In this document: positions 16,570 through 26,471 of the stretch, piece by piece
Layout of the letters: every line of letters begins with the position of its first letter
How positions within the stretch are numbered: the stretch's first letter is position 1
DNA from: Gimesia benthica
GTDB taxonomy: Bacteria > Planctomycetota > Planctomycetia > Planctomycetales > Planctomycetaceae
Reading direction: 5' to 3'
Length of the DNA: 64,000 nucleotides
Assembly: GCF_009720525.1 (NCBI RefSeq)
Contig: NZ_CP043930.1
Span: 1-64,000, forward strand
Translations under genes and position numbers: made by a program
Notes under the pieces: generated by a model
The model's input: the letters and a program-made list of their open reading frames with translations, nothing else
Database searches by the model: none
What the model was told of the DNA's origin: nothing

Positions 16570-16614
16570 AAGTGCCCCCGCTAGGAATCGAACCTAGAAC
16601 CTACTGATTAAGAG
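16570..16614. repeat. Left attachment site (attL), 45-bp direct repeat
   Basis: This is identical to 26427-26471. It holds the 3' half of tRNA-Lys from the anticodon loop to the acceptor end, without the 5' half. It marks the left boundary of the integrated element. Confidence 0.93.
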
Positions 16615-16731
16615 AGATTCTACAACGTCGGGGCAGAGTCGGTTCATTGTCGGATTGATTGTTTTGCAGTTGGTTTTACAATGTTTGTTGAGAGTCGGAT
16701 TGTCGTCGGTATGGGCGGCGGAGGCAGTGCT

Positions 16732-16758
16732 AGCTAACACTCTGGCTAACACCCTGAA
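16732..16758 (+). promoter_or_regulatory. Paired GCTAACAC repeats near attL, candidate integrase arm sites
   Basis: Two GCTAACAC copies in direct orientation are followed by CCTGAAA. A closely similar pair occurs at 26342-26368 near attR. Matching direct repeats near both ends are typical of integrase arm-type sites. Confidence 0.5.
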
Positions 16759-16851
16759 ACGATACAAACGGGGATAGGTTTGATCCCGAAAACCGGACCA
16801 TCCATCCGGCTTCCCCGTTTTACTTTTGGATTCGCTCGGGAGGGCGAGACT

Positions 16852-17559
16852 ATGAAAATCTGGGACGCTGACAGGAACCAGAACGAGTTACGGTGTTTTT
16901 TCAACCGTGACTATGCTGAGATTTTTAATGTTGCTGGTGATGCCTTTCGAAGGCTTACTGAAATTGCTTACGATGTGAGCGAAGACGGTTTCGATGATCC
17001 TAGTGTGGACCTAACTAAGCACAACACCGAATATCTCGACTCGGTCGAGCTGACCGTTGCTGCGATTACAGCATATTGCGACACCAACACATCCATAATC
17101 ACAGATCCGCTGATACACCTAATTCCTAGACTGCGATCACTGCTTGCAGGCGAAAAACTGGGAAGGATGATTGGTGGCGAAAATATTGAATCAGGGCTTT
17201 GTGATGATGAGTTGATTTCTATTGTCAGAATGCTGGATAATCTCTCGGTCAGATTCTTAAATCACATACATTTCGTTGCTGATGATAAACAGCGGGGAAT
17301 GATTGAGGGAGAAGACCGACAGAAGAAACGCGAAGACGAATTAACCATCGAAATCGCGGAACGTGACGAAGGCGGTCTTAGTTGGCCTGAATGCTTATCC
17401 GTATTCCTGGAAGAGTGCAAGAATTCCGGCATTGAAACCAGTATAAATGACAGTAAGGACCCCGCTGATGCCTTCAGGAAGAGGTACAGAGTGCTCAGGG
17501 GAAACAACTACGTCAAGAGGAAGAAAACAGGCGGCAGGCCGAAGAAGTCCATTAAATAG
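16852..17559 (+). CDS. Unknown protein of the integrated element
   Basis: ATG at 16852 (MKIWDADRNQNEL) is preceded by a GGGAGGG-type ribosome site; an earlier in-frame ATG at 16780 has none. The product is about 235 residues and mostly acidic, with a helical middle and a very basic tail ending KRKKTGGRPKKSIK, which suggests nucleic-acid contact. No family is recognised. It is the first gene inside attL. Confidence 0.6.
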   Translation: MKIWDADRNQNELRCFFNRDYAEIFNVAGDAFRRLTEIAYDVSEDGFDDPSVDLTKHNTEYLDSVELTVAAITAYCDTNTSIITDPLIHLIPRLRSLLAGEKLGRMIGGENIESGLCDDELISIVRMLDNLSVRFLNHIHFVADDKQRGMIEGEDRQKKREDELTIEIAERDEGGLSWPECLSVFLEECKNSGIETSINDSKDPADAFRKRYRVLRGNNYVKRKKTGGRPKKSIK

Positions 17560-17679
17560 AAACATGGCCTGAAACATGGACCGAGAAAAAACTTTGAAAA
17601 ACACCAAAGTTTTATTACTGGTTATTCTGCAGTCATTTTCGGCTATTGTCCCCTTATTCCTCGTTATTCTCTGATTGCA

Positions 17680-17722
17680 AAACATGGACTCCCTTAACCG
17701 GTCTGAGTCCATGTTTTTTCTA
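17680..17722 (+). terminator. Rho-independent terminator after the first element gene
   Basis: AACATGGACTC pairs with GAGTCCATGTT, followed by a T run. Confidence 0.75.
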
Positions 17723-17799
17723 CGTCGCACACGCCGTAATATTTCCCTGTCGAGAGCAACGGTACTCCGACACTGAGACTACTCAAGACAAGGGGAAAC

Positions 17800-25035: not shown

Positions 25036-25045
25036 ACGGTCGATT

Positions 25046-25079
25046 CTCCCCGGTCTGGTGATGCTGGGCCGGGGCTTTT
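25046..25079 (+). terminator. Terminator between the duplicated-domain gene and the integrase
   Basis: CCCCGG pairs with CCGGGG, followed by CTTTT. Confidence 0.65.
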
Positions 25080-25225
25080 ATGCCACATCGCGCAGGAGGC
25101 CACAGAATCGCCTGTAATGCGATATCGGCATTTATTGAACATTGACACCAATATCAAATTAAATCGCGTCAGCGGCTCACTGAGAGCCTCGGTTTGACGT
25201 AAGGAACGAAAAAAGGGGGTTGAGA

Positions 25226-26413
25226 GTGACAATTTCCGTATTCAAGCCAAATGGAAGAACAAACTACGTCTGTCAGTGGGTTGATCCCGTTACCGGACGC
25301 AAGAAGACCAGATCAGCGGGAACCAATATCAAACGCGATGCAGAACGGTTTGCGGGCAATCTGGAGCGAGACCTAGCAAACGGGACATATCACGAAAACG
25401 TGCGGATGACTTGGGAGTCATTCCGTAATCGGTTCGAAGACGAGTATCTTCCTGGAGTCTCCAGCAAAACAAGCGAGTGTTACCGAACCGTTTTCAACAG
25501 CGTCGAGCGAATCATTGACCCTTATCTGCTGTGCAATCTGAACGAAGCCACGATCAGCAAGTATCAAACGGAATTGCGAAAGCCAAGGCAGAAGGCAGAG
25601 GACAAGCCGAAAACCGTACTTTCAGATGCGACGGTACGATCAAACCTGATTCACCTGAAAGCGGCGCTACGCTGGGCAGCAGAGCAGAAGTTTATCCCGG
25701 TTGCGCCTAAGATCCGCATTCCGAAGAACTCGACCGGCATGAAGGGCCGACCGATCACAACCGAAGAATATGAAAGGATGATAAAACAGGTCGGTGTTAT
25801 CAAATCAAAGACGCCTGATGAGTGGGTGTTTCTTCTCAAGGGCTTGTGGTGGTCCGGTCTGCGACTCGGGGAGGCGCTTTCCCTTCACTGGACCGACGAA
25901 AGCAATATTTGCGTAGACTTGGAAAATGAGCTGCTACATATCCAAGCTCACGCGCAGAAGGGGCGGCGGTACAGTCAAACGCCGATGGCCCCTGAATTCG
26001 TTGATATGCTGCGAGAGATCCCCCGAGAGGACAGGGAAGGCTTTGTATTCAATCCTATCGGTTCACGCGACAGGAAGCAGCGAATCAGGCTTGATACGGC
26101 ATCAAAGATGATTGCCAAGATAGGGGAGGCAGCAGGCGTCAAAGTGGCTGAGACTCCAAGCGGAAAAGTCAAATTCGCCAGCGCTCACGATCTGCGGCGT
26201 GCCTTTGGGCTGCGGTGGTCTCGGTTGATCATGCCGACCGAATTGAAGGAGATCATGCGTCATGAGAACATTTCGACGACGATGCAATACTATGTCGGAC
26301 AGGACGCAAAACAGACCGTTAAGAAGCTCCGACAGGTCACAGCTAACACTTTAGCTAACACCCCGAAAAACGAGCCGGAAACCCAAAAAGAAAAAGACCA
26401 TAACCCGTTATAG
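25226..26413 (+). CDS. int: Tyrosine-type site-specific integrase
   Basis: GTG at 25226, seven bases after GGGGG, is preferred over the TTG at 25220, which abuts the ribosome site. The product is about 395 residues. It has an N-terminal arm-binding domain, a SAM-like core-binding domain (about 60-160) and a catalytic domain with Arg in SGLRLGEAL (near 213), HDLRR (near 321), the His of MRHEN (near 345) and Tyr in TMQYY (near 354). It recombines the 45-bp att site in tRNA-Lys. The gene ends 14 bases before attR. Confidence 0.93.
   Translation: MTISVFKPNGRTNYVCQWVDPVTGRKKTRSAGTNIKRDAERFAGNLERDLANGTYHENVRMTWESFRNRFEDEYLPGVSSKTSECYRTVFNSVERIIDPYLLCNLNEATISKYQTELRKPRQKAEDKPKTVLSDATVRSNLIHLKAALRWAAEQKFIPVAPKIRIPKNSTGMKGRPITTEEYERMIKQVGVIKSKTPDEWVFLLKGLWWSGLRLGEALSLHWTDESNICVDLENELLHIQAHAQKGRRYSQTPMAPEFVDMLREIPREDREGFVFNPIGSRDRKQRIRLDTASKMIAKIGEAAGVKVAETPSGKVKFASAHDLRRAFGLRWSRLIMPTELKEIMRHENISTTMQYYVGQDAKQTVKKLRQVTANTLANTPKNEPETQKEKDHNPL
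26342..26368 (+). promoter_or_regulatory. Paired GCTAACAC repeats near attR, candidate integrase arm sites
   Basis: Two GCTAACAC copies are followed by CCCGAAA, matching the pair at 16732-16758. They lie within the last integrase codons. Confidence 0.5.
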
Positions 26414-26424
26414 GCTATGGTCTT
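26394..26424 (-). terminator. Element-borne terminator downstream of tRNA-Lys
   Basis: AAGACCATA pairs with TATGGTCTT, with a T-rich tail on the minus strand. It lies directly 3' of the tRNA and replaces the host terminator now at 16534-16568. Confidence 0.7.
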
Positions 26425-26426
26425 CT

Positions 26427-26471
26427 AAGTGCCCCCGCTAGGAATCGAACCTAGAACCTACTGATTAAGAG
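26427..26471. repeat. Right attachment site (attR), 45-bp direct repeat
   Basis: Identical to 16570-16614. Here it is part of the intact tRNA-Lys gene. Confidence 0.93.

What the first reader, a model, noticed from the sequence alone, without database searches (positions are those of the whole stretch)
16570..26471. Minimal capsid-encoding phage satellite integrated in tRNA-Lys
Seen: a 9.9-kb unit with exact att repeats, integrase, PrimPol-helicase, small terminase and HK97 capsid, but no large terminase, portal, protease or tail genes, and no broken frames. Known capsid-forming satellites (cf-PICIs) carry a fuller packaging set, while P4-like elements usually carry no capsid gene. Inference: a reduced satellite class in planctomycetes that brings only its shell protein and DNA-recognition subunit.
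Basis: partly seen in the sequence, partly recalled or inferred. Interest (0 to 1): 0.85.

Follow-up and report, generated by a model that had tools for sequence, protein, structure and literature searches.

The report
Capsid-gene-carrying phage satellite in a planctomycete
A 9.9-kilobase stretch of DNA inserted in a transfer-RNA gene of a planctomycete bacterium looks like a parasite of viruses that carries its own shell-protein gene but must borrow the rest of the virus particle, and similar elements occur in other bacteria of the same phylum.

Summary
16570-26471 is a cleanly inserted element: exact 45-bp repeats in tRNA-Lys(CTT), integrase, PrimPol-AAA protein, AlpA-like regulator, small terminase (TerS), HK97-type capsid protein (MCP). 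No large terminase, portal, protease or tail gene was found. It is no one-off deletion: a congener carries the same element at the same tRNA (MCP 67%, integrase 81% identical) with TerS moved and the replicase swapped. Eight att-delimited MCP elements lie in six kinds of tRNA gene in seven planctomycete genomes, all 9.2-10.3 kb; six of eight have a TerS; no portal or TerL was found in them. Nine satellite MCPs plus four at contig ends form a supported clade without portal-flanked MCPs. Best reading: a PICI-like phage satellite that steers packaging with its TerS and makes satellite heads with its own MCP, borrowing portal, protease, TerL and tail. Satellite status is strongly supported; the capsid step is inferred; no helper was identified. 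New are the phylum, the lineage, and full-length MCP together with TerS.

The parts
16570..16614 (.). attL core, 45 bp exact copy of the tRNA-Lys 3' half
   Evidence: single copy in 5 of 5 congeners examined
26427..26471 (.). attR core, 45 bp, within tRNA-Lys
26429..26502 (-). tRNA-Lys (CTT), kept intact by the insertion
16534..16568 (.). native tRNA terminator-like hairpin, displaced to the left end
   Evidence: 39 of 42 bases match G238
26391..26426 (.). terminator-like hairpin brought by the element, now next to the tRNA
   Evidence: 27 of 42 bases match G238; repeat
16767..16832 (+). int-alpA RNA (Rfam RF02996), at the left end upstream of the first gene
   Evidence: 38.8 bits, gathering 35.8; also L056, L024 and, below gathering, L022
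16780..17559 (+). ORF A as listed; likely start 16852 (ATG, by comparison with L022); function unknown
   Evidence: 32% over 172 aa in L022; no family
17800..18024 (+). ORF B, small protein, weak excisionase-like match
   Evidence: 75% over 53 aa in L022; phrog_539, E 0.011
18049..18399 (+). ORF C, unknown
   Evidence: no family
18348..20417 (+). PrimPol - PriCT_1 - AAA_25 replication protein (likely start about 18393)
20490..20993 (+). TerS, Terminase_4 type (likely start 20520)
   Evidence: 54% in L022
21011..21412 (+). E133, conserved ORF of unknown function between TerS and the AlpA-like gene
   Evidence: 47% in L022, weaker in L055; no Pfam family, only a weak phrog_750 match, E 0.045
21449..21703 (+). 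AlpA/MerR-like regulator or excisionase
   Evidence: 63% in L022
21829..23214 (+). HK97-type major capsid protein, likely start 21871
   Evidence: PF05065 1.2e-30; 67% in L022; model pLDDT 83 matches phage heads
23557..25035 (+). G492, two-repeat protein of unknown function; relatives lie near integrases of other islands of the genus
   Evidence: no family
25220..26413 (+). tyrosine integrase
   Evidence: PF00589; 81% in L022 at the same tRNA

Best explanation
A PICI-like phage satellite. Shown from sequence: integrated at tRNA-Lys beside its own tyrosine integrase (clean att sites, sites without the element in congeners); carries a replication protein; encodes a TerS and a full-length HK97-type MCP; no TerL, portal, protease or tail gene found. 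Inferred: when a tailed phage grows in the cell the element is derepressed, excises and replicates; its TerS pairs with the helper's TerL and steers the motor to satellite DNA; its MCP builds satellite-specific, probably small, shells on the helper's portal, cut by the helper's protease and finished with helper tails. It thus stands between classical PICIs (borrow the shell) and cf-PICIs (bring the whole head module).
For: Gene set and att. Same element, same tRNA, in a congener with TerS relocated and replicase swapped. Eight MCP elements delimited by att repeats in Lys, Lys, Ala, Thr, Arg, Met, Ser and Ala tRNA genes; length 9159-10252, mean 9604, SD 368. Pfam over 67 of the 88 called ORFs other than integrase, replicase and MCP in those eight: Terminase_4 in 5, HNH in 2, no TerL/portal/protease/tail (complete list of 24 families; the 21 ORFs left out are 20 of at most 82 aa and one 170-aa frame on the other strand of the window). 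TerS in 6 of 8. In L022, L055, L056 and L085 the only frames of 300 aa or more are integrase, replicase and MCP, which leaves little room for a portal or TerL. MCP tree: 9 satellite + 4 contig-end rows in one clade, 97/88, no portal-flanked MCP inside; 2 more satellites pair elsewhere. MCP codon-position differences 0.26/0.22/0.60 against L022, as under purifying selection. Mean PICI size in print is 9.5 kb, cf-PICI 14 kb (PMC10803314 passage). N-terminal part of the MCP not shortened: median 159 against 141 aa in portal-flanked MCPs.
Against: No helper identified; of 13 carrier genomes 2 hold a portal over the Pfam cut-off, both in a GTA-like cluster, 2 (G734, G728) have matches below it, and 1 (G306) a Terminase_6N. 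MCP-less sister islands are as long (own genome 9775 bp, G519 10335 bp), so length alone does not show that this MCP sets head size. A shell 22-28% identical to the phage MCPs listed (20 of 102 records) must still fit a helper's portal and protease. No TerS seen in 2 of the 8 delimited elements (L029, L085), and those of L056 and L084 are weak matches. Two MCP carriers are labelled satellites without att repeats found (L024, L074) and one is cut by a contig end (L058); L024 has a weak TerL-profile hit (17 bits) 8 kb from its MCP. The tree's shuffle test of the label 'satellite' was not significant. No induction, particle or expression data.
Confidence: 0.6

Rival explanations
1. Same satellite, but the MCP works like SaPIbov5 Ccm: it does not form shells alone; it mixes with the helper's MCP, forces small heads and blocks the helper.
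For: [quoted passage not shown] PmCI172, with an MCP homologue, yields heads of about 37-39 nm (PMC6092414 passages).
Against: [quoted passage not shown] here the N-terminal part is not shortened (median 159 vs 141 aa; 13 MCPs, being 11 satellites and 2 contig-end rows, against 21 portal-flanked ones). Three members pair the MCP with a cement-like protein, as a whole shell would; but EcCICFT073 also has capsid and decoration proteins and its packaged DNA was phage-sized. The true helper is unknown, so the direct comparison is missing.
Confidence: 0.27
2. A decayed prophage that lost its other head and tail genes by deletion.
For: MCP and TerS are ordinary phage families.
Against: The same reduced set recurs at eight att-delimited sites of nearly equal length; frames are open and change against the congener is third-position biased; MCPs cluster apart from portal-flanked ones.
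Confidence: 0.04
3. A satellite whose helper is the vertically inherited, GTA-like head-tail cluster of this genus rather than a phage.
For: The cluster's portal occurs in 17 of 17 congeners and is the only portal over cut-off in the two carriers at tRNA-Lys.
Against: The other 11 of 13 carrier genomes have no portal over the cut-off; G307, G493, G519 and G468 have no match to this portal; its frame is interrupted in G227, itself a carrier, and in G389 and G414.
Confidence: 0.04
4. The MCP makes a DNA-free compartment or acts as a stand-alone anti-phage protein.
For: Weak encapsulin matches in the wide MCP profile.
Against: Best solved matches are phage heads; N-terminal helices as in a delta domain; TerS in the same element.
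Confidence: 0.05

Closest known systems
PICIs with a capsid-protein homologue: SaPIbov5 (Ccm), PmCI172, EcCICFT073
   Same: PICI-type gene set (integrase, regulator, primase) with an HK97-type or other capsid homologue; EcCICFT073 also has a head decoration protein (PMC6092414, PMC5052747 passages).
   Different: Other phylum; here a full-length MCP without a shortened N-terminal part together with a TerS; helper unknown; no direct sequence comparison with those elements was made.
Vibrio PISP (TG93)
   Same: Capsid protein + TerS + MerR-like regulator, no tail genes, 11.1 kb (PMC13230959 passages).
   Different: Plasmid without a detected integrase; PF03864 capsid and a head maturation protease, neither found here.
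cf-PICIs (and Streptomyces MulchRoom/MiniFlayer)
   Same: Satellite that encodes its own MCP and TerS (PMC10690885 passages).
   Different: cf-PICIs bring protease, portal, connectors, TerL and HNH; here TerL, portal, protease and connectors were not found, and the mean printed size is 14 kb.
P4-like and PICMI satellites
   Same: Small integrated elements with own integration and replication genes (PICMI abstract; P4 recalled).
   Different: PICMIs encode no capsid remodelling genes and travel as concatemers; P4 hallmark proteins (Sid, Psu; names recalled) are not among the 24 Pfam families.
C. difficile pCD-ISS1-type 8-kb plasmids
   Same: A lone annotated MCP gene on a very small replicon.
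   Different: Plasmid, no TerS or integrase annotated; MCP about 22% identical.

Membership tests
cf-PICI | encodes own MCP | tested here: met
cf-PICI | portal protein | tested here: not met
   complete Pfam list over 67 of 88 other ORFs of 8 elements; home-made portal HMM over all frames of 60 aa or more in 9 elements, no hit at E 1
cf-PICI | large terminase | tested here: not met
   no unassigned frame of 300 aa or more in L022, L055, L056, L085
cf-PICI | head maturation protease and connectors | tested here: not met
   no Pfam match; PHROGs on 67 ORFs, first 25 of 71 families shown. A small divergent protease cannot be excluded by size
PICI | own integrase and att site | tested here: met
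PICI | AlpA/MerR (Gram-negative) or Stl regulator | tested here: inconclusive
   AlpA/MerR-like protein, below Pfam cut-offs; PHROG excisionase/regulator 3.4e-10; no regulatory role shown
PICI | primase/replication initiator | tested here: met
   Prim-Pol/PriCT_1/AAA_25
PICI | size near 9.5 kb, no full structural module; TerS in some | tested here: met
   size from PMC10803314 passage, TerS in some from PMC6092414 passage
PICI | induction and packaging by a helper phage | not testable with these tools
   needs culture; no helper found
PICI | sequence kinship with known PICIs | not tested
   only phage and plasmid collections were searched: no near DNA match in phages, MCP identity 22-28% in the rows listed
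Ccm-type capsid redirector | HK97-fold capsid homologue | tested here: met
Ccm-type capsid redirector | delta domain shorter than the helper's | tested here: inconclusive
   not shorter than in portal-flanked planctomycete MCPs, but the true helper is unknown
P4-like | Psu/Sid-type proteins (names recalled) | tested here: not met
   none in the 24 Pfam families
complete or decayed prophage | head-tail module or its remnants | tested here: not met

The most novel reading that the evidence does not exclude
Planctomycete satellites form a two-tier system. MCP-bearing elements build a whole small shell (MCP, sometimes plus cement protein) on a foreign portal, protease, motor and tail; equally long MCP-less sisters with TerS, such as the 9775-bp element at tRNA-Arg in this same genome and the tandem neighbour in G519, travel in those satellite-made heads. 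The capsid gene would then be a shared good among satellites, a satellite of a satellite.
Probability: 0.1. Interest if true: 0.85.

Novelty: new variant of a known kind. Interest (0 to 1): 0.58.

Why it matters
PICIs are reported mainly from Firmicutes and Gammaproteobacteria (PMC10803314 passage). A set of related satellites in planctomycetes, in which the capsid gene stayed while replicase and TerS position changed, gives a natural test of how little of a head module a satellite must bring: does one shell protein suffice to set head size on a foreign portal and protease? It also offers markers (MCP clade, length near 9.6 kb, int-alpA RNA) for finding helpers in a little-explored host phylum.

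Tried and rejected
Third att copy at 8024961 of the own contig: first looked like a tandem island, then shown to be untrimmed contig-end overlap. IMG/VR scans with the MCP, two MCP alignments and the cement protein confirmed no relative. The one genome-contig scan gave 2 loci, of which L022 is a satellite. First MCP model poor (pLDDT 48), replaced by one with 44 rows. E133 and the 126-130 aa ORFs after TerS in L057/L024 are not shown to be related. PADLOC on 10 orphan ORFs matched only one, L057:13526-14611, to DRT (RT_UG10) and PrimPol models. Resident helper: none found with PF04860, PF03354 and PF03237; other portal or TerL families were not searched.

Rows dropped or set aside: of the 47 loci with an MCP hit, 22 had a portal beside it (11 of these built the portal HMM), 11 are the satellites and 14 had neither (contig ends or unseen portal types) and were not counted as satellites. 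In one search the 13 'satellite' MCPs are the 11 satellites plus contig-end rows L071 and L073; L034 was missing because it was not in alignment A9; L032, L070 and other unclassed rows were not used; L029 was kept although its N-terminus is short (24 aa). In one search, 21 of 88 ORFs were not given (20 of at most 82 aa, one of 170 aa on the other strand). L075 was too short for the tree. Only 5 of 16 other congeners were examined at tRNA-Lys; at least G350, G385, G389, G411 and G048 have further core-like copies, and G410 has a degenerate one (83-88%); these were not studied.

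Full report
What is there. The element lies between exact 45-bp repeats, 16570-16614 and 26427-26471; the right copy is the 3' half of tRNA-Lys(CTT), 26429-26502 minus. In order: an int-alpA RNA (RF02996), ORF A, small ORF B, ORF C, PrimPol-PriCT-AAA_25, TerS of the Terminase_4 type, E133, an AlpA/MerR-like protein, an HK97-type MCP, G492 and a tyrosine integrase. None of these ten matched TerL, portal, protease or tail families. By eye, two hairpins lie between MCP and G492 (about 23234-23345, the first followed by a T-run).

Insertion. 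In G238, G181, G410, G299 and G414 (5 of 5 congeners examined, of 16 others in the genus) the stretch fetched holds one core copy, in the tRNA-Lys, and no element DNA beyond a 115-bp remnant in G238. G410 also has a degenerate core-like copy, and at least five congeners not examined have further core-like copies, so the site seems to be used by other islands too. The 42 bases left of the element match G238's native terminator at 39 positions, those beside the tRNA at 27: the native terminator was displaced and the element supplies its own. The contig's ends overlap untrimmed (window 1-19108 = 8008365-8027492, 99.8%, 40 differing alignment columns); the extra att copy at 8024961 is therefore not real.

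The congener. G227 (contig of 177923 bases, the length of JAHZKX010000032.1, titled Planctomycetota) holds a 9159-bp element at the same tRNA-Lys beside the same host gene. MCP 67%, TerS 54%, E133 47%, integrase 81%, ORF B 75% over 53 aa; the replicase keeps a short PrimPol-like start (about 50% over 70 aa) but continues into a different protein related to the D5_N-type replicase of L055b (32%) and to that of L029 (37%); TerS lies after instead of before the MCP; G492 has no match. Codon-position differences are third-position biased in all seven pairs, flank gene included (dS saturated or not computable for most).

The family. The family-level search with the two MCPs matched 10 of 170 genomes; six (own, G227, G307, G468, G493, G519) hold MCP elements of this type, the other four only weak matches. 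In the class-level search 142 of 397 genomes have some MCP match, but 13 places in 10 genomes exceed 200 bits, 7 of them rows of the query. Eight elements could be delimited by att repeats: window (Lys, 9857), G227 (Lys, 9159), G519 (Ala, 9450), G493 (Thr, 9840, and Arg, 9462), G306 (Met, 9199), G754 (Ser, 9614, only an 18-bp repeat) and G766 (Ala, 10252); mean 9604, SD 368. I looked in stretches of at most 20 kb, so much longer elements would have been missed. Three more carry MCP and integrase without delimitation: G468 (contig end), G307 and G734 (serine integrases). TerS was seen in 6 of the 8: clearly in window, L022, L055 and L057, weakly in L056 and L084, not in L029 and L085; L024 has one too.

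Absent genes. I called 111 ORFs in the eight elements; 23 are integrase, main replicase or MCP; 67 of the other 88 were scanned. Pfam matched 24 families in all: Terminase_4 in 5 ORFs, HNH in 2, regulators, replication and methylase families, no portal, TerL, protease or tail. PHROGs showed the first 25 of 71 families, none of them portal or TerL, and orphans searched singly gave none. Home-made portal and TerL HMMs found portals beside the MCP in 22 of 47 loci with an MCP hit (11 of the 22 built the HMM) and in none of the 11 satellites; L024 has a weak TerL hit (17 bits) 8 kb downstream of its MCP, beyond the serine integrase. Over all frames of 60 aa or more in nine elements (the eight and the MCP-less L133) they gave no hit at E 1. 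In L022, L055, L056 and L085 every frame of 300 aa or more is integrase, replicase or MCP.

Capsid. A tree of 46 MCPs puts nine satellite rows and four contig-end rows in one clade (97/88) that holds no portal-flanked MCP; L084 and L085 pair elsewhere (97/88). The program's shuffle test of the label 'satellite' was not significant (239 of 500 shuffles as low); it counted contig-end rows as another group and left ungrouped rows uncounted, so it does not test the contrast with portal-flanked MCPs. The MCP model (pLDDT 83, 44 rows) has two long N-terminal helices as in a delta domain and an HK97 core; best solved matches are phage heads such as D3, phiXacJX1 and HK97. The N-terminal part is not shorter than in portal-flanked MCPs (median 159 vs 141, p 0.17; 13 vs 21), the core slightly shorter (271 vs 284, p 0.03, uncorrected). 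In L024, L057 and L058 a 143-144 aa protein, 76-83% identical, follows the MCP; its profile matches a solved cementing protein (3j4u, E 0.008), and a protein directly behind the MCP of a Synechococcus phage is 28% identical.

Sisters without MCP. The own genome holds a second element at tRNA-Arg(CCT), 47-bp att copies 9775 bp apart, with integrase, TerS (PF05119 2.1e-18), HNH and primase genes but no MCP. In G519 three att-like copies mark a tandem: the MCP element (9450) and a 10335-bp one with integrase, D5_N replicase and a TerS-like protein but no MCP; a third integrase (98% identical) lies further left. So length near 9.6 kb is shared by MCP-bearing and MCP-less elements, which weakens the argument from length to head size.

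Helper. Of 13 carrier genomes only the own and G227 have a portal over the Pfam cut-off, both in a syntenic cluster whose portal is present in 17 of 17 congeners; G734 (three) and G728 (one) have matches below it. Terminase_6N occurs only in G306. TerL_ATPase was searched in 19 genomes, carriers among them only own, G227, G307 and G306; G306 had one match below cut-off. Helpers may be non-resident or use other families.

Compared with print (passages seen, not whole papers). cf-PICIs carry MCP, protease, portal, connectors, TerL, TerS and HNH (PMC10690885). SaPIbov5 Ccm is an HK97-fold capsid homologue needed for small capsids but unable to form them by itself (PMC5052747). PmCI172 has an MCP homologue and yields heads of about 37-39 nm; EcCICFT073 has a capsid protein and a decoration protein but its packaged DNA was phage-sized (PMC6092414). 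The Vibrio PISP has capsid E, protease, TerS and a MerR-like regulator (PMC13230959). Mean sizes: P4 10, PICI 9.5, cf-PICI 14, PLE 18 kb (PMC10803314). No held paper contains all of planctomycet-, satellite, prophage, capsid and PICI; the library holds only open-licence papers, and three key papers looked up by DOI (recalled as the SatelliteFinder, cf-PICI and tycheposon papers) were not held, so a prior description elsewhere is possible.

Verdict. Observation confirmed; satellite reading strongly supported (my estimate about 0.9); own-shell mechanism favoured over Ccm-like mixing but not shown. New variant of a known kind.

Noticed in passing
own contig G000:C1 4053808-4081555 (L065-L067); syntenic in L063: GTA-like head-tail cluster: portal, MCP, an ORF with weak major-head and protease matches, head-tail adaptor, tail genes and a frame read as TerL only by position and a P-loop-like motif (no Pfam TerL match), interspersed with host genes and syntenic in G227; its portal is found in 17 of 17 congeners and 8 genomes of another genus, with interrupted frames in G227, G389 and G414. 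Possible gene transfer agent.
   Followed up: partly
window 1-19108 and G000:C1 8008365-8027492: Untrimmed circular overlap of the assembly, 99.8% identical, with mostly single-base indels, most of them in the first 9 kb of the window; several frames there are probably broken by sequencing error.
   Followed up: yes
L133 9912-19733 (own contig about 5934912-5944733): Second satellite-like element in the same genome at tRNA-Arg(CCT), 9775 bp, TerS + HNH + primase, no MCP.
   Followed up: partly
G519 C2 295765-316773 (L069, L055): Tandem array of satellite elements at tRNA-Ala, one with and one without MCP, plus a third integrase 98% identical to the first.
   Followed up: partly
window 16767-16832; L056 3819-3884; L024 3600-3665; L022 5387-5453: int-alpA RNA (RF02996) near the left end of four satellites (L022 below gathering score); not reported at gathering in the other loci searched.
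   Followed up: partly
window 23557-25035: G492 has two copies of a domain whose relatives (38-62% identical, the highest over only 48 aa) lie near related integrases in four other islands of the genus (L133, L134, L136, L138).
   Followed up: no
C. difficile plasmid pCD-ISS1 (L147): 8-kb plasmid whose only annotated virion gene is an MCP; possibly another lone-capsid satellite type.
   Followed up: no
L025, L027 (G138, G206): MCPs of a small-genome planctomycete family without a portal in the 20 kb fetched; G206 has a portal about 24 kb away on the same contig and G138 one on another contig, so these may be prophages.
   Followed up: no
tRNA-Lys(CTT) site in G350, G385, G389, G411, G048: Further exact or near copies of the att core a few to about 70 kb from the tRNA-Lys in some of these congeners suggest that other islands use the site.
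   Followed up: no
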